Below, piece after piece: positions 1-43,555 of a stretch of DNA of 64,000 nucleotides; the stretch's first letter is position 1, and each line of letters starts with the position of its first letter. Below the pieces are notes generated by a model. It searched no databases. It was not told where the DNA came from and saw nothing but the letters and a program-made list of their open reading frames with translations. The DNA comes from Siphonodentalium dalli. Lineage: Eukaryota; Mollusca; Scaphopoda; Gadilida; Siphonodentaliidae. The DNA is taken from contig CP136062.1 of assembly GCA_032622095.1 (NCBI GenBank), positions 158,528,875 to 158,592,874 on the forward strand. The letters are read 5' to 3'. A program made the position numbers and the translations under genes.

Positions 1-132
1 ATTGTACAAACCACAAGCTATACAATTATATATCAAGTGCACCCGTTTAAGCATCACCAAGTTGCTTTCCATTACAAGACAATACTATTGTTGAATTCAC
101 AGTTTAATAAGAAACAATGCATTCCATTTCAG

Positions 133-186
133 TAATTGAACCATCACCACTGCCACCCACAGTGCGACCAACAACACCAGCGCCAG
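133..186 (+). CDS. Pro/Thr-rich linker mini-exon, unit U1
   Basis: A 54-bp phase 1-1 exon between acceptor 'ccatttcag' and donor 'ccag|gtatgt'. Completed by the G that ends the intact phase-1 donors seen here, it encodes VIEPSPLPPTVRPTTPAP. The composition (8 Pro and 3 Thr of 18, no Cys) is that of a stiff, probably O-glycosylated spacer between folded extracellular modules. It alternates with one TSR exon per genomic unit, giving an expected 90-residue linker-TSR period in the protein. An ATG at 117 is in the same frame but lies upstream of the polypyrimidine-AG acceptor, so I treat it as intronic. The splice sites and phase match are visible; the spacer role is inferred from composition. 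RNA evidence is needed to be sure it is used. Confidence 0.66.
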
Positions 187-2034
187 GTATGTTCAATAAA
201 ATTACTGCTAAAATACGGATTGCTGACCAGTTTCTGACAAGTGAGTCTGTGCACCATTACTTAGCAACGCAGTACAATATACATCAATTGTTAACTCGGC
301 AGTTGTCAGGTCACGGTGTTTAATCGCCCCACCCAAATATTGGTCAAAATGTTCAATAGTTAGAAAAGTGCCTCACACAACATTTGGTGGAAGTTTTACA
401 CAAGATATAGGTTGAAATTGTTCTCATTGTTTGATTTTCAGTGATTTGTGGGGAATTTGTTAAATTTATACCGACAGCAGTATGTTTTCCGACTTTTGTT
501 AAAAGACTGAAATGGCCACCAGTTGGAAATTTCCAACTTTCTTTAGGGGGAATATTTACGTGGCAACCGTTGGAAATATCCAATAGTTCGAAAGTTTGAG
601 GTACCAGCTGGAAACTCCAACCAACGGGGTAGGTTGCAAGAGCAACAGTGTGAACCTAGTAGTTTGGTTTGGTCAGGATCAATGGTGCAGTATACATTCC
701 AAGGTAGACACCCCAACGTGTACTTTCTAGCCACTTCCATGGTATTGTTTTAATTCAATTAAATTAGTTAACATTCTTATCAACATATATTTGTTCGACA
801 ATATTGGAATCAGTGGCATGTAAATGCAAATATTAATTGCAGTGGCTACAGGCAAACATTTAATATGTATGTATAATATTTGCATATAGAAATGGCATAA
901 TCATATGTATATCATCATATTTATCTCATATATCGGATTATTGTATTTTTTTCCAATTTTCCAATGTTTTTTCAATAATATCTACTAGATTAGATTATGC
1001 TGTATGGAACTGGTTCAGAATGGTGACTTCATTGTGTATTGCTCATGTTAACTTACCAATGGAGCTATGGAATATGCCACTCATGTGTTCCCAAAAATAG
1101 ATTTTACAAAATGTGGTATAAAAGTCACCATGTGGTGTTCTGGTCATATTTCAACAATCAATGCGCAGAACTGTGTATCTCTTTATCTCAAAGTGGTAGC
1201 CAAACTTGCTGCCAAAATATGGAAAATGGTAAATATTGCCCCAGCAGGCCATGTATTCGATTACAATCTGTGCTCGATGAATAAAAATGGTTATTCTGTC
1301 TTATTGACATTGAATACCAACATTTCTGATACACTTTGGTTAACTGTTCCTATTGTAGCCATTGATATTGCCAGAATTATTGGAATTTTCTCTCACAATC
1401 TTGCTATAAAAATAGGCAAAAAATCACTTTTAAGGTTTCGACCATTTATTCAAGTAAACTTAAACTGTCTTTGGTATCAAATGTGTTTATTGTTTTGACA
1501 AGACTTGAATGCATTACACTGAGGTGTTTTCAGACCAAATAATCAAGATGGCTTGAAAAATAGCAACCACATTTGGTAAAAACATTTGATTATTGCACAT
1601 ATATCTCAAAATGGTAGCAAATTGTGACTCACTTAGTTATTAAATATTTTAATTAATCAACTGACAACTGTATTCTATTCTGGTTGTCCCAGTGTCTTAT
1701 GGGCCGTGACAAACTGAATTTAAAGGATTCAGTATGTAACTTTGCCGAAAACATCTTTTGGGATGCTGGCCATTTTTTAACAGAAATGGACAGAACAATG
1801 AAATTGATCTGAAAGGGGCCATATTGTAAGGCTACTCTGCCCCAATAACATAAAAACTCTGGACCATTGGCAACCAAATTGATTGACTAATGTCAGGAAA
1901 ACAGTTTCATCCGTTTCGCATATAGCATGCCAGCAAGATGTAGAACTCTCTGACAGTACCTCTCCGTCAATTAACATATCCTTGAGTTATTGTGGAGAGC
2001 GAAAGCCACCCAGTGGTACACATGTACAATCCAC
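187..2034 (+). other. Intron, first part (U1; recurs in U2-U6)
   Basis: Intron between linker and TSR exons. It contains a cluster of three TTGGAA/TTCCAA palindromes (about 521-617) and AT-rich stretches. From about 1050 to 1650 there is mobile-element-like sequence with recurring 'caaaatggtagc' and 'caagatggct' motifs. ORFs of 81 and 143 codons overlap at 1039-1498 in two frames. They match no family I recognise, and U5 carries substitutions throughout them. I see no convincing exon. Confidence 0.6.
521..617. promoter_or_regulatory. Triplet of GGAAA-TTTCC-type palindromes
   Basis: Three related dyads lie about 40-48 bp apart: agttggaaatttccaact (521-538, a perfect 18-bp palindrome), gttggaaatatccaat (569-584) and gctggaaactccaac (607-621). 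The first contains GGAAATTTCC, which fits the general kappa-B pattern. The set recurs in every 7.4-kb unit and is absent from the 3,965-bp units. A regulatory role is speculation; it could equally be a feature of an inserted element. Confidence 0.25.
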
Positions 2035-2625
2035 ATAGGGCCATAGTGTTACTCTATATATATACATACATAACACATAAATGACCATGTAACCACTCGC
2101 TTTATATACATACACCTCACCCATGACCATACACCCACACTTGGGTATACTCGTACACCTCACAATTGACAATACAGCCACGAGTTACCATGCATGTACA
2201 CCATGTATACTCCTACTCTTCACTCATGCCACATATAGTCACCACATGTATATATATTCACCACATTCGTGATCATAGTGTCACCTCTTGTATAATATTC
2301 GCCTCAACATTGGCCATACAATCTCTCCATCTATATCAATTTGCCACACCATGGCGATATAGCCACTCAAGATATACATATACACTACAACCATAGCAGT
2401 AGCATCACTTATACACATCACCAAATGTAAAACATCCCTTCCATATCTACAAATACCCACAAACATGGCCATGCATACACTTCAGACTTGCATATACACC
2501 TAACTCGTGACAATTCAGCCACTCTATATATACCAAATTCGTGGTCATACAGCTACTCTTTGTTCAACTATCGACATTAGCCACTTAATATATACATGCA
2601 CTGTGTGTAATGATGTACACCTCGC
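2035..2625. repeat. Degenerate ~40-bp minisatellite (U1)
   Basis: About a dozen diverged tandem copies, each roughly 40-45 bp, built on 'cata-agccactc', then a TATA/TACA run, then 'cacctcac-catgac'. Copies within one unit differ far more from each other than the whole block differs between units. The minisatellite therefore decayed before the 7.4-kb amplification. Confidence 0.75.
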
Positions 2626-2650
2626 CCATCCCATATAATCACCACAGGTA

Positions 2651-3586
2651 CAAACCGACACCTCGCGATTGGTCCCATGGCTTTGGTCGATCCATTAATT
2701 TTAGTTTTTCCAAGGTAACCCTGTACGTCGTTGCCACCGATGTTGCCCGAAATATCGCCCAAGGTCATTTTCGGGTACTCGTGTTAAGGTCATGTTGGGT
2801 GGACAAAATAACCCAACATATTTCCCGTCCCGAGTTGACCATACATAACAAATTTCCCATCGATGTCACCGCTGACTACCGAGATATCGCCCAATGTCAT
2901 ATGTGGGTATCCGTTTCAAGGTCAAGGTCACCTCGGGCGGACAAACTGACCCGACGAAAATCTCCCGCGTCCCTTGGAAAGTACGAAATTTCGTCTCGAT
3001 ATCCCCAGTTTTGACCTGCCGTATATTTTCACTAAAGTAGATAAAAGCTCTTTAATAGCGACGCCTCATATACAAACGCTCATTAATTATCATGCGATTA
3101 ACCCATCAATCCACATTACGGTGGCAGTTGAAGGGTGAAGGAGTGGTCGCACGGGCTCGCAAATGGTCCGAGTGCATTGCCTGTTGTTTTTGCCCTTACA
3201 CAGCTAGTTTGGGTTCAATCGGCCCAGCCGTTTTCGTCTCGATATCCCCAGTTTCCGAGACGGTCAAATGCCGTATATTTTCACTAAAGTAAATAAACGC
3301 CCTTTAATAGCCACGCGTCATATACAAACGCTCATTAATTATCACGCGATTAACCCATCAATCCCCATGGCGGTGGTAGTTGAAGGGTGAATGTGTGGTC
3401 GCACGGGCTCGCGAATGGTCCGTTGACACTTTCCGTGACTTTTTACCCTTAGATAGGAAATTTGGGATCAATCGGTCGAGCCGTTTTCGAGTCTATAAAG
3501 GACACAAATATATACGGAAGTCTCAAACAATATAGTAGATTTATTATTCACGAGCAGTCAGCGTTCAGTGATTGTGACAAATAACG
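2651..3586. mobile_element. Composite mobile-element-like block (U1)
   Basis: This block is less AT-rich than its surroundings and is itself repeated twice over. A ~132-bp tandem duplication begins at about 2751 and 2884 ('atatcgccca'). A 252-bp tandem duplication begins at 3019 and 3271 ('ccgtatattttcactaaag'). It ends in 'gtctataaaggacacaaat' followed by the truncated TSR exon. It contains an AGGTCA direct repeat (caaggtcaaggtcacc, 2917-2932). No transposase is visible. I infer a non-autonomous insertion because it abuts an exon that has lost its 5' half. Confidence 0.5.
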
Positions 3587-3742
3587 TGTACAAAGAAATG
3601 TGGTGATGGACTAGAATACTATAAGGGAACTTGTACTAATCCTGCCCCGACAAATGGTGGTAAACAATATCATGGTATCAGCATGAAGAGTGCAACGTGT
3701 AATACACAATCTTGTATTGTTCCAGTTGTGTACAAAATGTAA
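3587..3742 (+). pseudogene. 5'-truncated TSR exon (U1)
   Basis: In frame from 3587 the sequence encodes the cysteine half of a TSR: CTKKCGDGLEYYKGTC, then NPAPTNGG, then CNTQSC, then IVPVVYKM and a TAA at 3740-3742. The WxxW half is missing. An in-frame TGA lies at 3575, and the composite mobile-element block runs up to the break. The expected phase-1 acceptor cannot be formed: the nearest 'ttcag' (3568) leads to stops in all frames, and 'acaaag' (3595) would give phase 0. The donor position reads 'ccag|ttgtgt' rather than GT. It resembles exon E (54000) in CxxxCGxGLxYYKxTC. Most likely it is an exon killed by insertion before the array expanded. Use as an alternative last exon is possible but unsupported. 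Confidence 0.7.
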
Positions 3743-4155
3743 CAGCACCACACATGCATCACCATTTGGAAGTATAAGAAAGCCATCATTTTCATTAACT
3801 ATCAACCAGCATGTTGTTACGAAGTTAAAGTCTGAGACTGAATCATTGTTTATAATGCACTTCAACTCGGGTTATTTACAAATATAGCCCATAGCATATA
3901 TAACATTCATATTATGCATGTCACACTTGGATTAGTAAGTGGAGGTTATAAGTTTAAAGGTGGTACCATGTTTGGAATATGTAGCACTTTATCATAAAGC
4001 AACTTAACTGGCAACTGAGTTGAGACAGTGATGAAACTTTGTTATTAGGTCTGAATTACAAGTGTAGATTATATAGTTATATGCAGAAACCCTATAACAA
4101 TACTGAAAGACTGTTCTTCCCTTATAAATATTTGAATGTGTTTTCTCTCGTGCAG
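3743..4155 (+). other. Intron between dead and live TSR exons (U1; recurs in U2-U6)
   Basis: AT-rich sequence ending in the pyrimidine-rich acceptor 'tttctctcgtgcag'. I see no further exon or known element. ORFs in other frames here are short and have no family signature. Confidence 0.6.
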
Positions 4156-4371
4156 TTAAAGGAAATTGGGGTGCGTGGTCACCAGTCGAGCCAGAAGGAC
4201 CAGGTTACCCTACAGACGGTAATAACGATGGACCTAAATGTAGTGCTAAATGTGGAGGTGGAGTGCAGAAATGGACCCGATCTTGTAACAAGCCAGCACC
4301 ATTGAATGGCGGTGCAAATTGTGTAGGAAATACAATGAAATCGAAATCATGCAACACTAAGCTATGTCCAG
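4156..4371 (+). CDS. TSR (thrombospondin type-1 repeat) exon T, unit U1
   Basis: A 216-bp phase 1-1 exon (72 codons) between acceptor 'ctctcgtgcag' and donor 'ccag|gttagt'. It encodes exactly one TSR: NWGAWSPV near residues 3-10, a 20-residue Pro/Gly/Asp/Asn-rich insertion, then CSAKCGGGVQKWTRSC, NKPAPLNGG, C, and CNTKLCP at the end. All six TSR cysteines and the Arg layer (WTRSC) are present. WxxW is the established site of C-mannosylation. The residue before Cys2 is Lys, so the POFUT2 O-fucosylation sequon (Ser/Thr there) is absent. TSRs mediate extracellular matrix and receptor binding; the specific protein cannot be named. Linker exons lie on both sides. The sequence looks identical in U1-U5, but so are the introns, so identity alone is not evidence of selection. 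Confidence 0.9.
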
Positions 4372-5624
4372 GTTAGTTCACCCAGTTACCACATATTAAA
4401 CTTTTATGTTTTACTAACAACGATATTGTTCTGTACATTAGTTTTTCCCAGATAAGATTAAGAGAAGTTTTTAAAAGGGTGAATGGATATTTGGAGTGGT
4501 TGTATTAAAACACTGACATATAACTCACCTTATATACACAGGTACTTCAATTATTTTAATCTCCATATATTTCTAAGAACAATTTCGATGATGTAATCTT
4601 TCTCCAATGTTTACCTGTTTTACTGGACTTTGATTGATAATGTAACAGAACTGTCCCAATGTTGACATAACTCTCGTTTTGACACACGGAATCTGGTCGT
4701 TGGAGTGTTATTTTTAATAGAAATAATAACATTTCTGATCTATGTGTGGCATAATGAGCAGTTCTGTGAAGACACGAGTACCTTAAATTGTTCATGTTAA
4801 TTATATCAAAGCAAAATATTCATTGTTTGTTATTTTTTAATGATAATTTGTGATGTTAATAGTTAACAAAATCAAATGACCTCACCCTGCTCTTTCATAT
4901 TATGTTTACTTATGGTCATATTAAGGGATATGTTTTCTTAACATTACAGTATCCCACACACATTTCATAGATGTTTGAAAAGGGGGGATATTTGAAGTGG
5001 CTGTATTAAAACTCATAGTAACACAGGAGAGACTATTTTGTGAATAAGGTTATTAATACTGTGTGGGGATCAATAACAAAGGGGTGTGTAGCCTATATTT
5101 GTAGGCTGATGAACTGATAGATATCAACGTAGTAGAACAAGATAGTTTATGTTGTTTGAGGCTCAATAACCAGTGAGTGGTGGTATATGTGGTTGTTGCT
5201 CAGCTCACGAGATTCGCAATTCAAGCATTCAAAATATAGTAATAATTTTATTGAAATGTCTCGTCTCATAAATTTTTAGACAAATTAATCTCTGCTTGGC
5301 CAATTGCTGAATTTGGTCGTCGAATAAGTGTGTTCATATGCCATGTCCTCAATGATGATACCTTCTTTACAGACGTTCATGCGCATTACTATTCGTGTTA
5401 TATCAATGTTGCCAACACATGCGTCCCTTAAATATTTCATGTTAATAGATTATTGCACAATATTCATATATATCTTTATTTCCTCCATCTAGGAGAGTAT
5501 GATTTACAAAATTATAACATAGTAATATAGAAAGGAAAATAGATAATTATTCCCGCCACTATGAGGCACAAGCACTCATCCAATCAACCTAGCACGGGCA
5601 CACAATCTCATCAGCATGCATCCT
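4372..5624 (+). other. Intron downstream of exon T (U1; recurs in all units and in the 3,965-bp array)
   Basis: Noncoding. It contains an old internal duplication: 'ggatatttggagtggttgtattaaaac' -like sequence at about 4482 recurs as 'ggatatttgaagtggctgtat' at about 4986. From about 4592 onward this intron is also the left part of each 3,965-bp unit, so the two arrays share it. No exon seen. Confidence 0.6.
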
Positions 5625-5935
5625 AATCCATGTATACACATATACATACAAAAGTATATACATACATACACACGCACACCCTCCCTCACACATAAACACC
5701 CTTACATACACACATGTATACATACGTCCATACAACACAAATATAAACCTTATTTACACTGGTGCACAATCATGTTGTGGGGTTAAGGAGACGATCACTC
5801 GATCTTTTCGACAATCCCGGGCGCTTTGCGCCCACCCACTCTCTCATGCACAATCATACTTATGCACACACAGGCGCGCACACAAGCGTCCACTTACACG
5901 CGCACACATATATATACTCAACTACAAAAACAACG
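5625..5935. repeat. TACA/CA-rich low-complexity block (U1)
   Basis: Imperfect (TACA)n and (CA)n tracts, including alternating purine-pyrimidine 'cacgcgcacacatatatata'. Apparent ORFs through it have a low-complexity His/Thr/Tyr composition; the longest, in some copies, relies on a TTG start. I do not regard them as genes. Confidence 0.7.
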
Positions 5936-6603
5936 AACAAAATATACCTGGATTGATGCCCAGTATTTTTGTATAAGAAAATGCCTATAAGGTACCGTCC
6001 CTTAGTTGATTACTACCACACATGCAGGCAAACATTCACAAGAGATATGCAGGACATGCCGAAACACGGAATTCACGGGGAACTGAATGAAAGATAATCG
6101 ACTTGAGTTAGTCAGTTTATAGTAAACGTGGTCAAATGTTCACCAGTAATTTAAGTAAACTCACACTTTTCTCAATATAACTCATAACAATTTAGACACG
6201 GAATGGGCAGGAGCCGGGACCAAAGAATCATTTTGCACCAATACCACTTAATCAACTCGAACGGCGGCGGTGGATATTCTAGTTAAGAACATGCGTGTAT
6301 CAGTATCTACAGATCTACTGTGTGTGACCCACATTATGTGAGTAGAGGAGGGATGCCCTATAGCAGAAGAGTCCACAATTAGAGGTACCATGTCTTACCT
6401 ACCGGAAGCTGACATAAGCTAATGATAGGTAGAGCACTCTGCTGTATAGGCAGTTTCTGATATAGTCATAAAGAGTAGGAAAATAAAAGATAGCAGAAAC
6501 CCAGAGAACACATAAAAATTTCGTGTTATGATTTATATTTCATAATAATATTTAATTTAATCATTGTATGATAACGTTATGTGAAAAAGAAATAATCAAA
6601 AAA
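5936..6603 (+). other. Intron sequence without recognised content (U1; recurs in U2-U5, partly in U6 and the second array)
   Basis: Noncoding. It contains a 24-base stretch between two AATCA repeats (about 6228-6256) that is deleted in second-array copies 1 and 2 but kept in copy 3. Homology to the second array ends at 6318. I see no exon, RNA gene or clear mobile element. Confidence 0.55.
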
Positions 6604-6851
6604 GCGAGGCCATATGTCGCCTCGCATATATAAGAGAATGCATTGGCCTAAAAAAATCATTTTTTACACTTTTTACCATTTTTTCTTACATTCTTTAACA
6701 ATTTTATAATTTTTTCTCACATTTTTTAACAATTTTTATAATATATTTCTACATTCTTTGACATATTTTTAATATGTGTTAAGCCAATGCATTCTCTTAT
6801 ATATGCGAGGCGACCTATGGTCGACTCGCATATATACGAGAATGCATTGGC
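6604..6851. mobile_element. Foldback / MITE-like inverted-repeat element (U1)
   Basis: A 30-bp perfect inverted repeat (arms 6618-6647 and 6783-6812, core 'gagaatgcattggc'), extending with mismatches to about 6610/6820, flanks an AT-rich 'aacaatttt' interior. The right arm is repeated again inverted at 6819-6851. This makes a second hairpin with ~33-bp arms, two mismatches and a 3-base loop (6783-6851). The left end holds a shorter hairpin, gcgaggc...gcctcgc (6604-6625). No coding capacity. The structure fits a non-autonomous foldback element; no target-site duplication is obvious. Confidence 0.65.
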
Positions 6852-7577
6852 ACAGGGCCGTTATGTTGGGTAAAGGGTTAAACCCTTCTACTCGTTGAAC
6901 TCCTGTATAGGTATCTAGTGCAAAAGGCAACAAAGGCAAAGTATTATATTAGATTCTCCTAATTATGCAATTATAGATATATGACATGTATCTCAAGTTT
7001 CGAAACTAAACACTATGCTATTATTTTATTTGAACTTGAAGTTGAATTTGAGCAATGTATTATATATTTTCATTGTATACCTGTCCACAGCACCGCTTGC
7101 GCAATGTCAGTAATTGCGGTGTCCCTGTTTTTATGACGGTGTGACAGAGGCAGACACATTACATAAGCATTCCTTTTCCTGTCACAACTCAATCAATACT
7201 CCCTCCTTTGAATAAGTCCAATGAGCAGTTGTTGGCTCATTTTGCCAAGGACACGACACAACTTTGCTGTTAAAAATTAAACATTGCTTGATCGCTACAA
7301 AATATGGCTGCAGGGTTGTCTTCAGCATGAGCAGTGGGTCATTCACCTGTGATTTTCCCTCAACTTTGATCAAAATCGAAGCGTCTGCGGTCGCACTTAA
7401 TGTGACTATATAGTTTTTGAGTCTCGTCGGCAACACCTCTTGACCATTGTACAAACCACAAGCTATACAATTATATATCAAGTGCACCCGTTTAAGCATC
7501 ACCAAGTTGCTTTCCATTACAAGACAATACTATTGTTGAATTCACAGTTTAATAAGAAACAATGCATTCCATTTCAG
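6852..7577 (+). other. Intron preceding the next linker exon, with a conserved antisense ORF (U1/U2 boundary; recurs in U2-U5)
   Basis: A 111-codon ATG-to-stop ORF lies on the minus strand at 7182-7517. Copies are at 14627-14962, 22072-22407, 29520-29855 and 36992-37327, with a 3'-truncated view at 1-72. Its product begins MESNLVMLKRVHLIYNC and matches no family I recognise. It is identical in five units, but the flanking noncoding DNA is equally conserved, so there is no evidence of selection. It could be a transposon fragment or chance. The rest is AT-rich with a small AAGGGTT-A-AACCCTT hairpin near 6876. Confidence 0.3.
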
Positions 7578-7631
7578 TAATTGAACCATCACCACTGCCA
7601 CCCACAGTGCGACCAACAACACCAGCGCCAG
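7578..7631 (+). CDS. Pro/Thr-rich linker mini-exon, unit U2
   Basis: Same 54-bp exon and splice sites as at 133-186. The coding sequence is unchanged. Confidence 0.66.
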
Positions 7632-10070: not shown

Positions 10071-10095
10071 CCATCCCATATAATCACCACAGGTA

Positions 10096-11031
10096 CAAAC
10101 CGACACCTCGCGATTGGTCCCATGGCTTTGGTCGATCCATTAATTTTAGTTTTTCCAAGGTAACCCTGTACGTCGTTGCCACCGATGTTGCCCGAAATAT
10201 CGCCCAAGGTCATTTTCGGGTACTCGTGTTAAGGTCATGTTGGGTGGACAAAATAACCCAACATATTTCCCGTCCCGAGTTGACCATACATAACAAATTT
10301 CCCATCGATGTCACCGCTGACTACCGAGATATCGCCCAATGTCATATGTGGGTATCCGTTTCAAGGTCAAGGTCACCTCGGGCGGACAAACTGACCCGAC
10401 GAAAATCTCCCGCGTCCCTTGGAAAGTACGAAATTTCGTCTCGATATCCCCAGTTTTGACCTGCCGTATATTTTCACTAAAGTAGATAAAAGCTCTTTAA
10501 TAGCGACGCCTCATATACAAACGCTCATTAATTATCATGCGATTAACCCATCAATCCACATTACGGTGGCAGTTGAAGGGTGAAGGAGTGGTCGCACGGG
10601 CTCGCAAATGGTCCGAGTGCATTGCCTGTTGTTTTTGCCCTTACACAGCTAGTTTGGGTTCAATCGGCCCAGCCGTTTTCGTCTCGATATCCCCAGTTTC
10701 CGAGACGGTCAAATGCCGTATATTTTCACTAAAGTAAATAAACGCCCTTTAATAGCCACGCGTCATATACAAACGCTCATTAATTATCACGCGATTAACC
10801 CATCAATCCCCATGGCGGTGGTAGTTGAAGGGTGAATGTGTGGTCGCACGGGCTCGCGAATGGTCCGTTGACACTTTCCGTGACTTTTTACCCTTAGATA
10901 GGAAATTTGGGATCAATCGGTCGAGCCGTTTTCGAGTCTATAAAGGACACAAATATATACGGAAGTCTCAAACAATATAGTAGATTTATTATTCACGAGC
11001 AGTCAGCGTTCAGTGATTGTGACAAATAACG
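10096..11031. mobile_element. Composite mobile-element-like block (U2)
   Basis: U2 copy, with the same internal 132-bp and 252-bp duplications. Confidence 0.5.
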
Positions 11032-11187
11032 TGTACAAAGAAATGTGGTGATGGACTAGAATACTATAAGGGAACTTGTACTAATCCTGCCCCGACAAAT
11101 GGTGGTAAACAATATCATGGTATCAGCATGAAGAGTGCAACGTGTAATACACAATCTTGTATTGTTCCAGTTGTGTACAAAATGTAA
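11032..11187 (+). pseudogene. 5'-truncated TSR exon (U2)
   Basis: U2 copy of the half-exon at 3587-3742, unchanged. Confidence 0.7.
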
Positions 11188-11600: not shown

Positions 11601-11816
11601 TTAAAGGAAATTGGGGTGCGTGGTCACCAGTCGAGCCAGAAGGACCAGGTTACCCTACAGACGGTAATAACGATGGACCTAAATGTAGTGCTAAATGTGG
11701 AGGTGGAGTGCAGAAATGGACCCGATCTTGTAACAAGCCAGCACCATTGAATGGCGGTGCAAATTGTGTAGGAAATACAATGAAATCGAAATCATGCAAC
11801 ACTAAGCTATGTCCAG
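11601..11816 (+). CDS. TSR exon T, unit U2
   Basis: Same exon as at 4156-4371, with identical coding sequence and splice sites. Confidence 0.9.
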
Positions 11817-15022: not shown

Positions 15023-15076
15023 TAATTGAACCATCACCACTGCCACCCACAGTGCGACCAACAACACCAGCGCCAG
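15023..15076 (+). CDS. Pro/Thr-rich linker mini-exon, unit U3
   Basis: Identical linker exon. The U3/U5-specific variants begin only about 60 bases into the downstream intron. Confidence 0.66.
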
Positions 15077-17515: not shown

Positions 17516-17540
17516 CCATCCCATATAATCACCACAGGTA

Positions 17541-18476
17541 CAAACCGACACCTCGCGATTGGTCCCATGGCTTTGGTCGATCCATTAATTTTAGTTTTTC
17601 CAAGGTAACCCTGTACGTCGTTGCCACCGATGTTGCCCGAAATATCGCCCAAGGTCATTTTCGGGTACTCGTGTTAAGGTCATGTTGGGTGGACAAAATA
17701 ACCCGACATATTTCCCGTCCCGAGTTGACCATACATAACAAATTTCCCATCGATGTCACCGCTGACTACCGAGATATCGCCCAATGTCATATGTGGGTAT
17801 CCGTTTCAAGGTCAAGGTCACCTCGGGCGGACAAACTGACCCGACGAAAATCTCCCGCGTCCCTTGGAAAGTACGAAATTTCGTCTCGATATCCCCAGTT
17901 TTGACCTGCCGTATATTTTCACTAAAGTAGATAAAAGCTCTTTAATAGCGACGCCTCATATACAAACGCTCATTAATTATCATGCGATTAACCCATCAAT
18001 CCACATTACGGTGGCAGTTGAAGGGTGAAGGAGTGGTCGCACGGGCTCGCAAATGGTCCGAGTGCATTGCCTGTTGTTTTTGCCCTTACACAGCTAGTTT
18101 GGGTTCAATCGGCCCAGCCGTTTTCGTCTCGATATCCCCAGTTTCCGAGACGGTCAAATGCCGTATATTTTCACTAAAGTAAATAAACGCTCTTTAATAG
18201 CCACGCGTCATATACAAACGCTCATTAATTATCACGCGATTAACCCATCAATCCCCATGGCGGTGGTAGTTGAAGGGTGAATGTGTGGTCGCACGGGCTC
18301 GCGAATGGTCCGTTGACACTTTCCGTGACTTTTTACCCTTAGATAGGAAATTTGGGATCAATCGGTCGAGCCGTTTTCGAGTCTATAAAGGACACAAATA
18401 TATACGGAAGTCTCAAACAATATAGTAGATTTATTATTCACGAGCAGTCAGCGTTCAGTGATTGTGACAAATAACG
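17541..18476. mobile_element. Composite mobile-element-like block (U3)
   Basis: U3 copy. It has 'aacccgacat' where U1 and U2 read 'aacccaacat', a variant shared with U4-U6. Confidence 0.5.
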
Positions 18477-18632
18477 TGTACAAAGAAATGTGGTGATGGA
18501 CTAGAATACTATAAGGGAACTTGTACTAATCCTGCCCCGACAAATGGTGGTAAACAATATCATGGTATCAGCATGAAGAGTGCAACGTGTAATACACAAT
18601 CTTGTATTGTTCCAGTTGTGTACAAAATGTAA
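18477..18632 (+). pseudogene. 5'-truncated TSR exon (U3)
   Basis: U3 copy, unchanged in the TSR part. Confidence 0.7.
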
Positions 18633-19045: not shown

Positions 19046-19261
19046 TTAAAGGAAATTGGGGTGCGTGGTCACCAGTCGAGCCAGAAGGACCAGGTTACCC
19101 TACAGACGGTAATAACGATGGACCTAAATGTAGTGCTAAATGTGGAGGTGGAGTGCAGAAATGGACCCGATCTTGTAACAAGCCAGCACCATTGAATGGC
19201 GGTGCAAATTGTGTAGGAAATACAATGAAATCGAAATCATGCAACACTAAGCTATGTCCAG
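19046..19261 (+). CDS. TSR exon T, unit U3
   Basis: Identical to the U1 exon, although neighbouring intron positions differ. Confidence 0.9.
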
Positions 19262-22467: not shown

Positions 22468-22521
22468 TAATTGAACCATCACCACTGCCACCCACAGTGC
22501 GACCAACAACACCAGCGCCAG
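22468..22521 (+). CDS. Pro/Thr-rich linker mini-exon, unit U4
   Basis: Identical linker exon with an intact acceptor and donor. Confidence 0.66.
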
Positions 22522-24962: not shown

Positions 24963-24987
24963 CCATCCCATATAATCACCACAGGTA

Positions 24988-25924
24988 CAAACCGACACCT
25001 CGCGATTGGTCCCATGGCTTTGGTCGATCCATTAATTTTAGTTTTTCCAAGGTAACCCTGTACGTCGTTGCCACCGATGTTGCCCGAAATATCGCCCAAG
25101 GTCATTTTCGGGTACTCGTGTCAAGGTCATGTTGGGTGGACAAAATAACCCGACATATTTCCCGTCCCGAGTTGACCATACATAACAAATTTCCCATCGA
25201 TGTCACCGCTGACTACCGAGATATCGCCCAAGGTCATATGTGGGTATCCGTTTCAAGGTCAAGGTCACCTCGGGCGGACAAACTGACCCGACGAAAATCT
25301 CCCGCGTCCCTTGGAAAGTACGAAATTTCGTCTCGATATCCCCAGTTTTGACCTGCCGTATATTTTCACTAAAGTAGATAAAAGCTCTTTAATAGCGACG
25401 CCTCATATACAAACGCTCATTAATTATCATGCGATTAACCCATCAATCCACATTACGGTGGCAGTTGAAGGGTGAAGGAGTGGTCGCACGGGCTCGCAAA
25501 TGGTCCGAGTGCATTGCCTGTTGTTTTTGCCCTTACACAGCTAGTTTGGGTTCAATCGGCCCAGCCGTTTTCGTCTCAATATCCCCAGTTTCCGAGACGG
25601 TCAAATGCCGTATATTTTCACTAAAGTAAATAAACGCTCTTTAATAGCCACGCGTCATATACAAACGCTCATTAATTATCACGCGATTAACCCATCAATC
25701 CCCATGGCGGTGGTAGTTGAAGGGTGAATGTGTGGTCGCACGGTCTCGCGAATGGTCCGTTGACACTTTCCGTGACTTTTTACCCTTAGATAGGAAGTTT
25801 GGGATCAATCGGTCGAGCCGTTTTCGAGTCTATAAAAGGACACAAATATATACGGAAGTCTCAAACAATATAGTAGATTTATTATTCACGAGCAGTCAGC
25901 GTTCAGTGATTGTGACAAATAACG
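24988..25924. mobile_element. Composite mobile-element-like block (U4)
   Basis: U4 copy. It has a private 'acggtctcgcg' where the others read 'acgggctcgcg', plus one extra A in 'tataaaagg'. Confidence 0.5.
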
Positions 25925-26080
25925 TGTACAAAGAAATGTGGTGATGGACTAGAATACTATAAGGGAACTTTTACTAATCCTGCCCCGACAAATGGTGGTA
26001 AACAATATCATGGTATCAGCATGAAGAGTGCAACGTGTAATACACAATCTTGTATTGTTCCAGTTGTGTACAAAATGTAA
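25925..26080 (+). pseudogene. 5'-truncated TSR exon, Cys lost (U4)
   Basis: U4 copy with tgt to ttt at about 25970, turning the third TSR cysteine (KGTC) into Phe. Loss of a disulfide residue supports absence of constraint on this fragment. Confidence 0.74.
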
Positions 26081-26493: not shown

Positions 26494-26709
26494 TTAAAGG
26501 AAATTGGGGTGCGTGGTCACCAGTCGAGCCAGAAGGACCAGGTTACCCTACAGACGGTAATAACGATGGACCTAAATGTAGTGCTAAATGTGGAGGTGGA
26601 GTGCAGAAATGGACCCGATCTTGTAACAAGCCAGCACCATTGAATGGCGGTGCAAATTGTGTAGGAAATACAATGAAATCGAAATCATGCAACACTAAGC
26701 TATGTCCAG
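26494..26709 (+). CDS. TSR exon T, unit U4
   Basis: Identical to the U1 exon and intact, in contrast to the damaged half-exon 400 bases upstream in the same unit. Confidence 0.9.
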
Positions 26710-29915: not shown

Positions 29916-29969
29916 TAATTGAACCATCACCACTGCCACCCACAGTGCGACCAACAACACCAGCGCCAG
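29916..29969 (+). CDS. Pro/Thr-rich linker mini-exon, unit U5
   Basis: Identical linker exon. It lies upstream of the diverged block of this unit. Confidence 0.66.
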
Positions 29970-32437: not shown

Positions 32438-32462
32438 CCATCCCATATAATCACCACAGGTA

Positions 32463-33397
32463 CAAACCGACACCTCGCGATTGGTCCCATGGCTTTGGTC
32501 GATCCATTAATTTTAGTTTTTCCAAGGTAACCATGTACGTCGTTGCCACCGCTGTTGCCCGAAATATCGCCCAAGGTCATTTTCGGGTACTCGTCTCAAG
32601 GTCATGTTGGGTGGACAAAATAACCCGACATATTTCCCGTCCCGAGTTGACCATACATAACAAATTTCACATCGATGTCACCGCTGACTACCGAGATATC
32701 GCCCAAGGTCATATGTGGGTATCCGTTTCAAGGTCAAGGTCACCTCGGGCGGACAAACTGACCCGACGAAAATCTCCCGCGTCCCTTGGAAAGTACGAAA
32801 TTTCGTCTCGATATCCCCAGTTTTGACCTGCCGTATATTTTCACTAAAGTAGATAAACGCTCTTTAATAGCGACGCCTCATAAACAAACGCTCATTAATT
32901 ATCACGCGATTAACCCATCAATCCACATTACGGTGGCAGTTGAAGGGTGAAGGAGTGGTCGCACGGGCTCGCGAATGGTCCGAGTGCATTGTCTGTTGCT
33001 TTTGCATTTACACAGCTAGTTTGGTTTCAATCGGCCCAGCCGTTTTCGTCTCGATATCCCCAGTTTCCGAGACGGTCAAATGCCGTATATTTTCACTAAA
33101 GTAAATAAACGCTCTTTATTGGCCACGCGTCATATACAAACGCTCATTAATTATCACGCGATTAACCCATCAATCCCCATGGCGGTGGCAGTTGAAGGGT
33201 GAATGGTGGTCGCACGGGCTCGCGAATGGTCCGTTGACACTTTCCGTGACTTTTTACCCTTAGATAGGAAGTTTGGGATCAATCGGTCGAGCCGTTTTCG
33301 AGTCTATAAAGGACACAAATATATACGGAAGTCTCAAACAATATAGTAGATTTATTATTCACGAGCAGTCAGCGTTCAGTGATTGTGACAAATAACG
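32463..33397. mobile_element. Composite mobile-element-like block (U5)
   Basis: U5 copy and the most diverged of the six ('attgtctgttgcttttgcat', 'tttattggccacg'). Identity with the other units resumes before its right end. Confidence 0.5.
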
Positions 33398-33553
33398 TGT
33401 ACAAAGAAATGTGGTGATGGACTAGAATACTATAAGGGAACTTGTACTAATCCTGCCCCGACAAATGGTGGTAAACAATATCATGGTATCAGCATGAAGA
33501 GTGCAACGTGTAATACACAATCTTGTATTGTTCCAGTTGTGTACAAAATGTAA
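33398..33553 (+). pseudogene. 5'-truncated TSR exon (U5)
   Basis: U5 copy. It matches U1-U3, so this part of U5 lies outside the diverged block. Confidence 0.7.
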
Positions 33554-33966: not shown

Positions 33967-34182
33967 TTAAAGGAAATTGGGGTGCGTGGTCACCAGTCGA
34001 GCCAGAAGGACCAGGTTACCCTACAGACGGTAATAACGATGGACCTAAATGTAGTGCTAAATGTGGAGGTGGAGTGCAGAAATGGACCCGATCTTGTAAC
34101 AAGCCAGCACCATTGAATGGCGGTGCAAATTGTGTAGGAAATACAATGAAATCGAAATCATGCAACACTAAGCTATGTCCAG
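33967..34182 (+). CDS. TSR exon T, unit U5
   Basis: Identical to the U1 exon; it lies to the right of the diverged block. Confidence 0.9.
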
Positions 34183-36413: not shown

Positions 36414-36661
36414 GCGAGGCCATATGTCGCCTCGCATATATAAGAGAATGCATTGGCCTAAAAAAATCATTTTTTACACTTTTTACCATTTTTTCTTACA
36501 TTCTTTAACAATTTTATAATTTTTTCTCACATTTTTTAACAATTTTTATAATATATTTCTACATTCTTTGACATATTTTTAATATGTGTTAAGCCAATGC
36601 ATTCTCTTATATATGCGAGGCGACCTATGGTCGACTCGCATATATACGAGAATGCATTGGC
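36414..36661. mobile_element. Foldback element (U5, last copy)
   Basis: U5 copy. U6 is truncated before this position, so it is absent from the second array. Confidence 0.65.
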
Positions 36662-37387: not shown

Positions 37388-37441
37388 TAATTGAACCATC
37401 ACCACTGCCACCCACAGTGCGACCAACAACACCAGCGCCAG
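37388..37441 (+). CDS. Pro/Thr-rich linker mini-exon, unit U6 (last copy)
   Basis: Identical linker exon. It is the last one recognised; the downstream A, D and E TSR exons have no linker between them, so the protein changes from a spaced to a directly abutting TSR arrangement here. Confidence 0.66.
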
Positions 37442-39290
37442 GTATGTTCAATAAAATTACTGCTAAAATACGGATTGCTGACCAGTTTCTGACAAGTGAG
37501 TCTGTGCACCATTACTTAGCAACGCAGTACAATATACATCAATTGTTAACTCGGCAGTTGTCAGGTCACGGTGTTTAATCGCCCCACCCAAATATTGGTC
37601 AAAATGTTCAATAGTTAGAAAAGTGCCTCACACAACATTTGGTGGAAGTTTTACACAAGATATAGGTTGAAATTGTTCTCATTGTTTGATTTTCAGTGAT
37701 TTGTGGGGAATTTGTTAAATTTATACCGACAGCAGTATGTTTTCCGACTTTTGTTAAAAGACTGAAATGGCCACCAGTTGGAAATTTCCAACTTTCTTTA
37801 GGGGGAATATTTACGTGGCAACCGTTGGAAATATCCAATAGTTCGAAAGTTTGAGGTACCAGCTGGAAACTCCAACCAACGGGGTAGGTTGCAAGAGCAA
37901 CAGTGTGAACCTAGTAGTTTGGTTTGGTCAGGATCAATGGTGCAGTATACATTCCAAGATAGACACCACAACGTGTACTTTCTAGCCACTTCCATGTGTA
38001 TTGTTTTAATTCAATTAAATTAGTTAACATTCTTATCAACATATATTTGTTCGACAATATTGGAATCAGTGGCATGTAAATGCAAATATTAATTGCAGTG
38101 GCTACAGGCAAACATTTAATATGTATGTATAATATTTGCATATAGAAATGGCATAATCATATGTATATCATCATATTTATCTCATATATCGGATTATTGT
38201 ATTTTTTTCCAATTTTCCAATGTTTTTTCAATAATATCTACTAGATTAGATTATGCTGTATGGAACTGGATCAGAATGGTGACTTCATTGTGTATTGCTC
38301 ATGTTAACTTACCAATGGAGCTATGGAATATGCCACTCATGTGTTCCCAAAAATAGATTTTACAAAATGTGGTATAAAAGTCACCATGTGGTGTTCTGGT
38401 CATATTTCAACAATCAATGCGCAGAACTGCGTATCTCTTTATCTCAAAGTGGTAGCCAAACTTGCTGCCAAAATATGGAAAATGGTAAATATTGCCCCAG
38501 CAGGCCATGTATTCGATTACAATCTGTGCTCGATGAATAAAAATGGTTATTCTGTCTTATTGACATTGAATACCAACATTTCTGATACACTTTGGTTAAC
38601 TGTTCCTATTGTAGCCATTGATATTGCCAGAATTATTGGAATTTTCTCTCACAATCTTGGTATAAAAATAGGCAAAAAATCACTTTTAAGGTTTCGACCA
38701 TTTATTCAAGTAAACTTAAACTGTCTTTGGTATCAAATGTGTTTATTGTTTTGACAAGACTTGAATGCATTACACTGAGGTGTTTTCAGACCAAATAATC
38801 AAGATGGCTTGAAAAATAGCAACCACATTTGGTAAAAACATTTGATTATTGCACATATATCTCAAAATGGTAGCAAATTGTGACTCACTTAGTTATTAAA
38901 TATTTTAATTAATCAACTGACAACTGTATTCTATTCTGGTTGTCCCAGTGTCTTATGGGCCGTGACAAACTGAATTTAAAGGATTCAGTATGTAACTTTG
39001 CCGAAAACATCTTTTGGGATGCTGGCCATTTTTTAACAGAAATGGACAGAACAATGAAATTGATCTGAAAGGGGCCATATTGTAAGGCTACTCTGCCCCA
39101 ATAACATAAAAACTCTGGACCATTGGCAACCAAATTGATTGACTAATGTCAGGAAAACAGTTTCATCCGTTTCGCATATAGCATGCCAGCAAGATGTAGA
39201 ACTCTCTGACAGTACCTCTCCGTCGATTAACATATCCTTGAGTTATTGTGGAGAGCGAAAGCCACCCAGTGGTACACATGTACAATCCAC

Positions 39291-39881
39291 ATAGGGCCAT
39301 AGTGTTACTCTATATATATACATACATAACACATAAATGACCATGTAACCACTCGCTTTATATACATACACCTCACCCATGACCATACACCCACACTTGG
39401 GTATACTCGTACACCTCACAATTGACAATACAGCCACGAGTTACCATGCATGTACACCATGTATACTCCTACTCTTCACTCATGCCACATATAGTCACCA
39501 CATGTATATATATTCACCACATTCGTGATCATAGTGTCACCTCTTGTATAATATTCGCCTCAACATTGGCCATACAATCTCTCCATCTATATCAATTTGC
39601 CACACCATGGCGATATAGCCACTCAAGATATACATATACACTACAACCATAGCAGTAGCATCACTTATACACATCACCAAATGTAAAACATCCCTTCCAT
39701 ATCTACAAATACCCACAAACATGGCCATGCATACACTTCAGACTTGCATATACACCTAACTCGTGACAATTCAGCCACTCTATATATACCAAATTCGTGG
39801 TCATACAGCTACTCTTTGTTCAACTATCGACATTAGCCACTTAATATATACATGCACTGTGTTTAATGATGTTCACCTCGC
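39291..39881. repeat. Degenerate ~40-bp minisatellite (U6)
   Basis: Unit U6 copy, with a few private changes near its right end ('gtttaatgatgttc'). Confidence 0.75.
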
Positions 39882-39906
39882 CCATCCCATATAATCACCA
39901 CAGGTA

Positions 39907-40831
39907 CAAACCGACACCTCGCGATTGGTCCCATGGCTTTGGTCGATCCATTAATTTTAGTTTTTCCAAGGTAACCCTGTACGTCGTTGCCACCGATGTT
40001 GCCCAAAATATCGCCCAAGGTCATTTTCTGGTACTCGTGTCAAGGTCATGTTGGGTGGACAAAATAACCCGACATATTTCCCGTCCGAGTTGACCATACA
40101 TAACATCGATGTCACCGCTGACTACCGAGATATCGCCCAAGGTCATATGTGGGTATCCGTTTCAAGGTCAAGGTCACCTCGGGCGGACAAACTGACCCGA
40201 CGAAAATCTCCCGCGTCCCTTGGAAAGTACGAAATTTCGTCTCGATATCCCCAGTTTTGACCTGCCGTATATTTTCACTAAAGTAGATAAAAGCTCTTTA
40301 ATAGCGACGCCTCATATACAAACGCTCATTAATTATCATGCGATTAACCCATCAATCCACATTACGGTGGCAGTTGAAGGGTGAAGGAGTGGTCGCACGG
40401 GCTCGCAAATGGTCCGAGTGCATTGCCTGTTGTTTTTGCCCTTACACAGCTAGTTTGGGTTCAATCGGCCCAGCCGTTTTCGTCTCGATATCCCCAGTTT
40501 CCGAGACGGTCAAATGCCGTATATTTTCACTAAAGTAAATAAACGCTCTTTAATAGCCACGCGTCATATACAAACGCTCATTAATTATCACGCGATTAAC
40601 CCATCAATCCCCATGGCGGTGGTAGTTGAAGGGTGAATGTGTGGTCGCACGGGCTCGCGAATGGTCCGTTGACACTTTCCGTGACTTTTTACCCTTAGAT
40701 AGGAAGTTTGGGATCAATCGGTCGAGCCGTTTCGAGTCTATAAAGGACACAAATATATACGGAAGTCTCAAACAATATAGTAGATTTATTATTCACGAGC
40801 AGTCAGCGTTCAGTGATTGTGACAAATAACG
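39907..40831. mobile_element. Composite mobile-element-like block (U6)
   Basis: U6 copy, with a ~12-base deletion at about 40105 (between 'cataac' and 'atcgatg') and single-base losses at 40086 and 40730. Confidence 0.5.
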
Positions 40832-40987
40832 TGTACACAGAAATGTGGTGATGGACTAGAATACTATAAGGGAACTTGTACTAATCCTGCTCCGACAAAT
40901 GGTGGTAAACAATATCATGGTATCAGCATGAAGAGTGCAACGTGTAATACACAATCTTGTATTGTTCCAGCTGTGTACAAAATGTAA
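40832..40987 (+). pseudogene. 5'-truncated TSR exon (U6)
   Basis: U6 copy with aag to cag (K to Q) in the first CxxxC and gtt to gct near the end. Reading frame and stop are retained. Confidence 0.7.
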
Positions 40988-41400
40988 CAGCACCACACAT
41001 GCATCACCATTTGGAAGTATAAGAAAGCCATCATTTTCATTAACTATCAACCCGCATGTTGTTACGAAGTTAACGTCTGAGACTGAATCATTGTTTATAA
41101 TGCACTTCAACTCGGGTTATTTACAAATATAGCCCATAGCATATATAACATTCATATTATGCATGTCACACTTGGATTAGTAAGTGGAGTTTATAAGTTT
41201 TAAGGTGGTACCATGTTTGGAATATGTAGCACTTTATCATAAAGCAACTTAACTGGCAACTGAATTGAGACAGTGATGAAACTTTGTTATTAGGTCTGAA
41301 TTACAAGTGTAGATTATATAGTTATATGCAGAAACCCTATAACAATACTGAAAGACTGTTCTTCCCTTATAAATATTTGAATGTGTTCTCTCTCGTGCAG

Positions 41401-41616
41401 TTAAAGGTAATTGGGGTGCGTGGTCACCAGTCGAGCCAGAAGGACCAGGTTACCCTACAGACGGTAATAACGATGGACCTAAATGTAGTGCTAAATGTGG
41501 AGGTGGATTGCAGAAATGGACCCGATCTTGTAACAAGCCAGCACCATTGAATGGCGGTGCAAATTGTGTAGGAAATACAATGAAATCGAAATCATGCAAC
41601 ACTAAGCTATGTTCAG
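41401..41616 (+). CDS. TSR exon T, unit U6 (variant)
   Basis: The only T exon with changes: gga to ggt (silent), gtg to ttg (Val to Leu after CGGG), and cca to tca (Pro to Ser at the last full codon). All six Cys, both WxxW tryptophans and the splice sites are kept. It is the last T exon; the next TSR exons downstream are A-type. Confidence 0.9.
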
Positions 41617-42885
41617 GTTAGTTCACCCAGTTACCACATATTAAACTTTTATGTTTTACTAACAACGATATTGTTCTGTACATTAGTTTTTCCCAGATAG
41701 GATTAAGAGAAGTTTTTAAAAGGGTGAATGGATATTTGGAGTGGTTGTATTAAAACACTGACATATAACTCACCTTATATACACAGGTACTTCAATTATT
41801 TTAATCTCCATATATTTCTAAGAACAATTTCGATGATGTTATCTTTCTCCAATGTTTACCTGTTTTACTGGACTTTGATTGATAATGTAACAGAACTGTC
41901 CCAATGTTGACATAACTCTCGTTTTGACACACGGAATCTGGTCGTTGGAGTGTTATTTTTAATAGAAATAATAACATTTCTGATCTATGTGTGGCATAAT
42001 GAGCAGTTCTGTGAAGACACGAGTACCTTAAATTGTTCATGTTAATTATATCAAAGCAAAATATTCATTGTTTGTTATTTTTTAATGATAATTTGTGATG
42101 TTAATAGTTAAGAGTATGATTATGTAACAAAATCAAATGACCTCACCCTGCTCTTTCATATTATGTTTACTTACGGTCATATTAAGGGATATGTTTTCTT
42201 AACATTACAGTATCCCACACACATTTCATAGATGTTTGAAAAGGGGGGATATTTGAAGTGGCTGTATTAAAACTCATAGTAACACAGGAGAGACTATTTT
42301 GTGAATAAGGTTATTAATACTGTGTGGGGATCAATAACAAAGGGGTGTGTAGCCTATATATGTAGGCTGATGAACTGATAGACATCAACGTAGTAGAACA
42401 AGATAGTCCATGTTGTTTGAGGCTCAATAACCAGTGAGTGGTGGTATATGTGGTTGTTGCTCAGCTCACGAGATTCGCAATTCAAGCATTCAAAATATAG
42501 TAATAATTTTATTGAAATGTCTCGTCTCATAAATTTTTAGACAAATTAATCTCTGCTTGGCCAATTGCTAAATTTGGTCGTCGAATAAGTGTGTTCATAT
42601 GCCATGTCCTCAATGATGATACTTTATTTACAGACGTTCATGCGCATTACTATTCGTGTTATATCAATGTTGCCAACACATGCGTCCCTTAAATATTTCA
42701 TGTTAATAGATTATTGAAAACTATTCATATATATCTTTATTTCCTCCATCTAGGAGAGTATGGTTTACAAAATTATAACATAGTAATATAGAAAGGAAAA
42801 TAGATAATTATTCCCGCCACTATGAGGCACAAGCCCTCACCCAAACAACCTTGCACGGGCACACAATCTCATCAGCATGCATCCT

Positions 42886-43196
42886 AATCCATGTATACAC
42901 ATATACATACAAAAGTATATACATACATACACACGCACACCCTCTCTCACACATAAACACCCTTACATACACACATGTATACATACGTCCGTACAACATA
43001 AATATAAACCTTATTTACACTGGTGCACAATCATGTTGTGGGGTTAAGGAGACGATCACTCGATCTTTTCGACAATCCCGGGTGCTTTGCGCCCACCCAC
43101 TCTCTCATGCACAATCATACTTATGCACACACAGGCGCGCACACAAGCGTCCACTTACACGCGCACACATATATATACTCAACTACAAAAACAACG
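42886..43196. repeat. TACA/CA-rich low-complexity block (U6 / second-array copy 1)
   Basis: This copy belongs both to U6 and to the first 3,965-bp unit. It shares 'cgtccgtacaac' with the later copies, whereas U1-U5 read 'cgtccatacaac'. Confidence 0.7.
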
Positions 43197-43555
43197 AACA
43201 AAATGTACCTGGATTGATGCCCAGTATTTTTGTATAAGAAAATGCCTATAAGGTACCGTCCCTTAGTTGATTACTACCACACATGCAGGCAAACATTCAC
43301 AAGAGATATGCAGGACATGCCGAAACACGGAATTCACGGGGAACTGAATGAAAGATAATCGACTTGAGTTAGTCAGTTTATAGTAAAAGTGGTCAAATGT
43401 TCACCAGTAATTTAAGTAAACTCACACTTTTCTCAATATAACTCATAACAATTAGACACGGAATGGGCATGAGCCGGGACCAGAGAATCAACTCGATCGG
43501 CGGCGGGTGGATATTCTAGTTAAGAACGTGCGTGTATCAGTATCTACAGATCTAC

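What the first reader, a model, noticed from the sequence alone, without database searches (positions are those of the whole stretch)
1..43555. Genomic accordion: a 7.4-kb tandem unit that adds a linker-TSR pair to a protein with each copy
Seen: six near-identical units, each with a phase 1-1 linker exon (54 bp) and a phase 1-1 TSR exon (216 bp), all on the + strand. Known: symmetric exons can be duplicated or skipped without frame damage, and TSRs (Pfam TSP_1 family) are classic shuffled modules. Inferred: array copy number sets the number of 90-residue linker-TSR modules and could vary between individuals. The array is open at the left window edge, so the true copy number is higher. Very large, almost identical, intron-containing units used this way are unusual.
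Basis: partly seen in the sequence, partly recalled or inferred. Interest (0 to 1): 0.78.

Follow-up and report, generated by a model that had tools for sequence, protein, structure and literature searches.

The report
Tandem DNA array sets protein-module number
An animal gene holds a row of nearly identical 7.4-kb DNA blocks, each predicted to add one thrombospondin-type module and a short proline-rich spacer to a protein, and two assembled versions of the row differ in length; this resembles the human LPA and DMBT1 genes, so it is a good new example of a known kind rather than a new kind of thing.

Summary
Six units (98.4-99.97% identical) fill window 1-43490, each with a 54-nt linker exon and a 216-nt TSR exon, both phase 1-1, + strand. 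(1) The array runs about 26 kb further left and mixes two unit types, 7.4 kb (linker+TSR) and 2.66 kb (TSR alone): 8 linkers, 12 TSRs. (2) A second copy about 0.3 Mb away, 0.13-0.19% divergent at the array edges, has 7 linkers and 9 TSRs; predicted array length is 774 against 1008 residues, no stop in either. One pair of long units looks younger than the split of the copies; the extra short block does not clearly do so. (3) A paralogue on C6 keeps the linker exon and the TSR (dN/dS 0.23 and 0.43), so both exons are probably real. (4) The units carry a dead half-TSR exon that is intact in the paralogue. The second copy may be a haplotype, a segmental duplicate or a redundant contig; the window ends 5.4 kb from an assembly gap. 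No transcript was available. LPA KIV-2 and DMBT1 work the same way: a new member of a known kind.

The parts
1..43490 (+). tandem array, six units of about 7.45 kb (the sixth is cut at 6.2 kb); the right-hand part of a longer array
   Evidence: extends left to about C2:158502505
133..186 (+). linker exon, unit 1 (54 nt, phase 1-1, VIEPSPLPPTVRPTTPAP)
   Evidence: homologous 27-nt exon in the C6 paralogue
7578..7631 (+). linker exon, unit 2
15023..15076 (+). linker exon, unit 3
22468..22521 (+). linker exon, unit 4
29916..29969 (+). linker exon, unit 5
37388..37441 (+). linker exon, unit 6
4156..4371 (+). alpha TSR exon, unit 1 (216 nt, phase 1-1)
11601..11816 (+). alpha TSR exon, unit 2
19046..19261 (+). 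alpha TSR exon, unit 3
26494..26709 (+). alpha TSR exon, unit 4
33967..34182 (+). alpha TSR exon, unit 5
41401..41616 (+). alpha TSR exon, unit 6
3578..3715 (+). beta TSR relic, unit 1: 5' half lost, no usable acceptor seen; intact homologues in the C6 gene. Same relic at 11023-11160, 18468-18605, 25916-26053, 33389-33526, 40823-40960
3522..6195 (+). the part of the unit that also occurs alone as the short (2.66-kb spaced) unit left of the window
41838..53978 (+). second tandem, three copies spaced 3.96 and 4.21 kb, its first part sharing sequence with the first array
44079..44291 (+). gamma TSR exon, copy 1 (also 48044-48256, 52257-52469)
44937..45107 (+). broken gamma TSR, copy 1 (also 48902-49072, 53114-53284); stop inside
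45129..45344 (+). gamma-2 TSR exon, copy 1 (also 49094-49309, 53306-53521)
53999..54187 (+). delta TSR exon, the last TSR found in this gene; conserved in the C6 gene
   Evidence: Pfam TSP_1 17.5 bits, below cut-off
54348..56145 (.). 32-bp minisatellite, about 56 copies, presumed intron
57742..57872 (+). likely downstream exon (acidic, then His-rich), phase 1-1; conserved on C6. This copy is out of frame relative to the second C2 copy by a one-base difference; the second copy is open
58558..64000 (.). 55-bp minisatellite, continues to the assembly gap 5.36 kb right of the window

Best explanation
This is part of a large gene for a probably extracellular protein built largely of thrombospondin type 1 repeats (TSRs), one per phase 1-1 exon, with proline/threonine-rich linker exons. 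A block linker-(dead beta TSR)-alpha TSR became tandem, in two unit types: a core with the alpha TSR alone and a 7.4-kb block that also holds the linker. Because the exons are phase 1-1 and each unit carries its own splice sites, each gain or loss of a unit by unequal exchange should add or remove 72 residues (TSR alone) or 90 residues (linker+TSR) without frame damage. Shown: the anatomy, the open reading through 20 and 16 predicted exons, the paralogue, and two assembled copies that differ in number. Inferred: splicing of all units into one mRNA, unequal exchange as the mechanism, the order in which the two unit types arose, variation between individuals, and adhesion or ligand binding that scales with TSR number.
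For: Copy A reads L-a5-(L-a)7 (20 exons, 20 with AG/GT, 1008 aa, 0 stops, 72 Cys = 6 per TSR); copy B reads L-a3-(L-a)6 (16 exons, 16 with AG/GT, 774 aa, 0 stops). First unit pairs with first (7 substitutions in the core, 7 in the linker part) and last core with last core (2), while the cores of inner units A6-A11 differ by only 1-11 from each other; an old-edge, young-centre pattern expected from unequal exchange. Two neighbouring long units in A differ by 2 in 7445 (0.027%), less than the A-B divergence at the edges (14/7469 and 15/11250), so a gain or an equalising exchange in A is probably younger than the split. Between the common unit sequence and the two C6 alpha exons, DNA identity is 90% and dN/dS is 0.064/0.282 and 0.084/0.195; gamma 0.075/0.394. 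Flanking intron aligns to C6 at only about 64-76% or not at all. A scan for P/T-rich mini-exons on both strands of 128 kb of C2 and 70 kb of C6 gave three distinct peptides: two forms of this linker and one on C6, at the homologous place. No gap falls in the alpha exon (21 copies) although 108 of 2693 alignment columns have gaps, nor in the linker (15 copies) although 488 of 4818 do.
Against: No transcript data. Inside the array the alpha exon is not depleted of substitutions (8 sites, 8.9 expected; 3 silent and 5 replacement by my reading) and the linker has an excess (9 sites, 1.7 expected), so recent constraint is not visible. The extra short block of A (A2A3 against A4A5) differs by 11 in 5304, no less than A differs from B, so it need not be younger than the split; only A2 against A4 is near identical (1). 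The last linker part does not pair uniquely between copies (14 substitutions, tied with another), and one divergent linker part sits 7th in A but 2nd in B (31 substitutions apart), which a simple one-step history does not explain. The unit carries a dead exon and the second tandem a broken TSR per copy. The assembly is fragile here: 100-N gap 5.4 kb right of the window, a following contig that duplicates C2:160.22 Mb, and 5 one-base indels with 0 substitutions in 900 bp between A and B. The 5' end of the gene was not found. I set the mini-exon scan's thresholds after seeing the linker.
Confidence: 0.7

Rival explanations
1. The array is real but its different lengths are an assembly effect: copies A and B are one locus assembled twice, and the assembler gained or lost units. 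(Not exclusive of the coding part of the best explanation.)
For: Gap and contig edge at minisatellites; the contig after the gap duplicates C2:160.22 Mb at 98.3-100%; A and B differ by only 0.13-0.19% at the array edges and by 0 substitutions and 5 one-base indels in 900 bp near the contig edge; neighbouring units differ by as little as 2 in 7445.
Against: A and B differ by substitutions (14 and 15 at the two edges), most units carry differences of their own, and the offset change between the copies (12,790 bp) fits two short plus one long unit.
Confidence: 0.3
2. A and B are a recent segmental duplication, two paralogous genes in every individual, each with its own array length.
For: Same strand, same chromosome, about 0.31-0.34 Mb apart depending on the place sampled; other pairs of equal-scoring TSR exons are frequent in the hit lists; larger tandem structure upstream (TSR hits spaced 37.2-37.7 kb).
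Against: The gap and the duplicate contig between them are what a retained second haplotype would also give.
Confidence: 0.35
3. The array is a decaying or silent part of the gene: amplified neutrally and skipped or not transcribed.
For: Dead beta exon in 12 of 12 A units; no depletion of substitutions in the alpha exon among 21 copies and an excess in the linker.
Against: No stop or gap and AG/GT sites in 21 of 21 alpha and 15 of 15 linker exons; constraint between C2 and C6.
Confidence: 0.15

Closest known systems
LPA kringle IV type 2 (KIV-2) array, human apolipoprotein(a)
   Same: Tandem units of several kb (5.5 kb), two exons per unit (160 and 182 bp), large introns, copies 98-100% alike in exons, copy number (1 to >40) sets the number of protein domains (PMC4378929, passages).
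   Different: There one domain is split over two exons; here one TSR exon plus a separate linker exon. Here two unit types coexist, and variation between individuals is not shown.
DMBT1 (SALSA/gp340) SRCR array
   Same: Extracellular Cys-rich domains with interspersed Ser/Thr-rich segments; tandem CNV gives 7-21 domains and changes bacterial binding (PMC9038570, passages).
   Different: SRCR, not TSR; function and alleles are known there, unknown here.
Poly-TSR proteins (SCO-spondin recalled; thrombospondin-1 and properdin matched)
   Same: Several TSRs per chain; the array TSR matches thrombospondin-1 TSRs in the PDB.
   Different: Here alpha, beta, gamma and delta TSRs have about 11-16 extra residues between the second Trp and the first Cys compared with the upstream TSRs (counted), and part of the number is set by a nearly identical array.
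C6 paralogue in the same genome (C6:43.236-43.291 Mb)
   Same: Same exon types in a similar order: canonical TSRs, linker, beta, alpha, gamma and delta TSRs and the acidic exon.
   Different: No 7.4-kb array in the pieces read: alpha TSR twice, beta intact (three), linker 27 nt; it has instead a 498-bp tandem of canonical TSRs.

Membership tests
Thrombospondin type 1 repeat (Pfam TSP_1) | Profile score above the curated cut-off (21.6 bits) | tested here: met
   alpha 27, gamma 26.8; C6 gamma 28, C6 beta 26.1, canonical 45.1; delta 17.5, not met
Thrombospondin type 1 repeat (Pfam TSP_1) | Six conserved cysteines and the tryptophans | tested here: met
   in 20 aligned TSRs two W and five Cys are invariant and the sixth Cys is in 19 of 20, one C6 alpha lacking it; 72 Cys in 12 TSRs of copy A
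Thrombospondin type 1 repeat (Pfam TSP_1) | TSR fold | not testable with these tools
Intragenic, intron-containing tandem array that sets domain number (LPA KIV-2, DMBT1 kind) | Tandem multi-kb units each holding complete frame-neutral exons | tested here: met
Intragenic, intron-containing tandem array that sets domain number (LPA KIV-2, DMBT1 kind) | Copy number differs between alleles or individuals | tested here: inconclusive
   two assembled copies differ (12/8 against 9/7) but may be alleles, paralogues or assembly products
Intragenic, intron-containing tandem array that sets domain number (LPA KIV-2, DMBT1 kind) | All units spliced into one mRNA and protein | not testable with these tools
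   no RNA or protein data available

The most novel reading that the evidence does not exclude
The two copies are alleles: one animal carries TSR-array alleles of 12 and 9 modules and makes two extracellular proteins differing by 234 residues, in an invertebrate counterpart of LPA/DMBT1 whose array grows in two step sizes, a bare TSR (72 residues) or a linker+TSR (90 residues), so that the number of binding modules and their spacing can be tuned separately.
Probability: 0.3. Interest if true: 0.6.

Novelty: new member of a known kind. Interest (0 to 1): 0.45.

Why it matters
Protein length set by the copy number of large intron-bearing DNA units is well described for a few human genes, where it matters for disease and microbe binding. 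A young example in another animal, with a paralogue that shows the unamplified state, a fossil exon that helps to order events and two unit types, would let the growth of such arrays be dated and the effect of module number be tested. It also warns that such genes are easily miscounted in assemblies.

Tried and rejected
A linker read by chance is unlikely: a scan of both strands of 128 kb of C2 and 70 kb of C6 for P/T-rich mini-exons with splice sites (thresholds set by me after seeing the linker; identical peptides shown once) gave only two forms of this linker and one exon on C6, none on the minus strand; a 121-bp alignment of mainly upstream intron joins the C2 and C6 places at 69%. 'Every unit adds a linker' was rejected. 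The half-TSR as a working exon was rejected: an in-frame stop lies just upstream with no AG between, and the donor is changed (read; the same flanking letters in the 5 of 6 window units that the pattern matched; the sixth, unit 4, was found by profile). Three other ORFs of the unit (141-152 aa) and four outside the array gave no Pfam match. No Rfam family reached its threshold in the window. A first motif search printed nothing, as the motif did not fit these TSRs. A first joined reading of A and B undercounted exons (16 and 11) and was replaced by one from listed coordinates. In the linker-DNA search one of 16 matches, on C3, covers only intron next to the linker and was not counted.

Species: not identified. 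A literature search for nine chromosomes and 2.2 Gb gave one paper, on the scorpion Hadrurus arizonensis (2.23 Gb, nine chromosomes, nanopore; PMC11126328, passages). The arthropod cuticle family Chitin_bind_4 (its arthropod link is recalled) gave 0 matches here, which speaks against an arthropod, though the tool warns that this does not show absence; the haemocyanin family PF14830 (mollusc link recalled) also gave 0. I leave it open.

Literature searches for TSR arrays with copy-number change: 0 papers, 12 of 16 listed, 2 of 2, 10 of 23 listed. I saw titles and abstract starts only; none of these describes such an array. Searches were likewise without use. Only open-licence papers are held.
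Full report
OBSERVATION. The window is C2:158528875-158592874 of a 2.23-Gb genome in 9 contigs. Self-comparison shows six head-to-tail units of about 7445 bp from 1 to 43490, the sixth cut at 6.2 kb. They are 98.41-99.97% identical over 15 pairs, gaps left out. Each holds a 54-nt linker exon and a 216-nt TSR exon, 6 of 6 with AG/GT and phase 1-1. The TSR scores 27 bits against Pfam TSP_1 (cut-off 21.6) and matches thrombospondin-1 in the PDB at E 1.2e-13.

Starting about 580 bp before the TSR exon, the unit has the 3' half of another TSR (beta). A profile finds it in 12 of 12 units of this array, 6 of 6 in the window. In the paralogous gene on C6 the same exon is complete (three examples in the pieces read). 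Here its first half is gone, a stop lies just upstream in frame with no AG between, and the donor is changed (read). It is a fossil exon copied along with the unit. In copy B it was not counted; one B unit lacks the start of the core.

EXTENT. Searching the genome with TSR and linker DNA shows 12 TSRs and 8 linkers in this array (copy A), of which the window holds 6 and 6. To the left lie units spaced about 2.66 kb that correspond to unit positions 3522-6195 and contain the TSR without the linker. The order is L-a5-(L-a)7; 20 of 20 exons have AG/GT and read 1008 residues with 0 stops and 72 cysteines.

SECOND COPY. About 309-322 kb further right lies a second version (copy B): L-a3-(L-a)6, 16 of 16 exons with AG/GT, 774 residues, 0 stops. 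The change of offset across the array, 12,790 bp, fits two short and one long unit (calculated). Left and right edges differ between A and B by 14 of 7469 and 15 of 11250 bases. The first unit pairs with the first (7 and 7 substitutions) and the last core with the last (2), whereas cores of inner units A6-A11 differ by 1-11. Two neighbouring long units differ by 2 in 7445, less than A differs from B, so a gain in A, or an equalising exchange, is probably younger than the split. Not all fits so well. The extra short block (A2A3 against A4A5) differs by 11 in 5304, mostly between A3 and A5 (10), so it need not be younger. The last linker part does not pair uniquely (14, a tie), and a divergent linker part sits 7th in A and 2nd in B, 31 substitutions apart. 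Unequal exchange with some gene conversion is the likely history, but the steps are not resolved.

WHAT A AND B ARE. Unresolved. A 100-N gap lies 5.36 kb right of the window, at the end of the 55-bp minisatellite as assembled. The contig after the gap matches C2:160.22 Mb at 100% over 2251 bp and at 98.3-100% in 4 of 4 further 300-base samples. In 900 bp near the contig edge A and B show 0 substitutions but 5 one-base indels, which looks like consensus error in one of them. B's left flank matches A's at several offsets because the upstream region is itself repetitive. Alleles, paralogues and redundant assembly all remain possible.

ARE THE EXONS REAL. Between the common unit TSR and the two C6 alpha exons DNA identity is 90%, dN/dS 0.064/0.282 and 0.084/0.195; the six C2-C6 alpha comparisons range from 88 to 90% identity; gamma gives 0.075/0.394. 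Flanking intron aligns at about 64-76% or not at all. The linker exists on C6 as a 27-nt phase 1-1 exon with similar splice contexts. Against recent constraint: among 21 alpha exons 8 sites vary where 8.9 are expected (3 silent, 5 replacement by my reading), and among 15 linkers 9 vary where 1.7 are expected (Poisson P about 7e-5). Seven of the nine mark the first linker of both copies and keep it proline-rich. No gap or stop falls in either exon in any of the 21 and 15 copies.

THE GENE. In the fetched 133 kb of C2 the TSR profile (E 0.01) hits only the + strand: 14 canonical TSRs upstream (one a partial match), 12 alpha with 12 beta relics, then a second tandem (spacing 3.96 and 4.21 kb) with gamma, broken gamma and gamma-2 in three copies, then delta. 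A likely later exon (acidic, then His-rich) lies at 57742-57872; a search with its C6 version gave three matches at E up to 1: C6 itself, copy A (E 0.07, first 17 residues) and copy B (E 0.75, full length). C6 shows a similar order (canonical TSRs, linker, beta, alpha, beta, gamma, gamma, alpha, beta, gamma, delta, acidic exon) in the pieces read; C6:43265001-43270000 was not fetched. The 5' end, and whether TSRs further upstream (spaced 37.2-37.7 kb) belong to this gene, are unknown.

MECHANISM AND COMPARISON. Frame-neutral exons in a homologous tandem make gain or loss of whole modules harmless to the frame. This is how the human LPA KIV-2 array (5.5-kb unit, exons of 160 and 182 bp, 1 to >40 copies; PMC4378929, passages) and the DMBT1 SRCR array (7-21 domains, effect on bacterial binding; PMC9038570, passages) behave. 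The present array looks like them: met for anatomy, open for variation between alleles, untested for transcription. Function (adhesion or ligand binding scaling with TSR number) is inference from the TSR family.

VERDICT. A true and well-formed observation, a partly right interpretation, and a new member of a known kind. Interest is moderate and would rise if A and B prove to be alleles.

Noticed in passing
C2:158329583, 158367251, 158404803, 158441974 (outside the window): TSR exons of near-equal score spaced 37.2-37.7 kb: a larger-scale tandem upstream on the same strand; sampled pieces of the region are about 96-99% alike.
   Followed up: partly
C2:158626145-158668345 (L028, L027): Two samples 40 kb apart, between copies A and B, lie in the same satellite with a 30-base period (read from alignment offsets); whether it is continuous was not checked.
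   Followed up: no
C2:158598333-158620300 and C2:160219302-160241470: The contig right of the gap is a 98-100% copy of sequence 1.6 Mb away in the places sampled, suggesting misplaced or redundant contigs.
   Followed up: partly
C2:210.64-210.65 Mb (-) and C2:213.61-213.62 Mb (+); C5:57.29 (+) and 57.53 (-); C5:144.59 (-) and 144.74 (+): Pairs of TSR exons with equal scores in inverted orientation: inverted duplications or redundant contigs.
   Followed up: no
whole genome: TSR exons are numerous: 150 matches scored (the limit) of 1811 candidates, with clusters on C3:161.60-161.82, C2:167.00-167.22 and C1:226.57-226.72 Mb.
   Followed up: no
C6:43236567-43238726: Five canonical TSR exons at 498-bp spacing in the paralogue, four with the same peptide: a smaller version of the same process.
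   Followed up: partly
linker of the first unit, C2:158503481, and its partner in copy B: Seven of 54 bases differ from the common linker, changing five residues yet keeping it proline-rich; conversion from another linker or selection.
   Followed up: partly
window 6600-6860 (unit 1): An AT-rich element with inverted ends; similar pieces occur in both orientations left of the array, so it looks like a short transposon.
   Followed up: no
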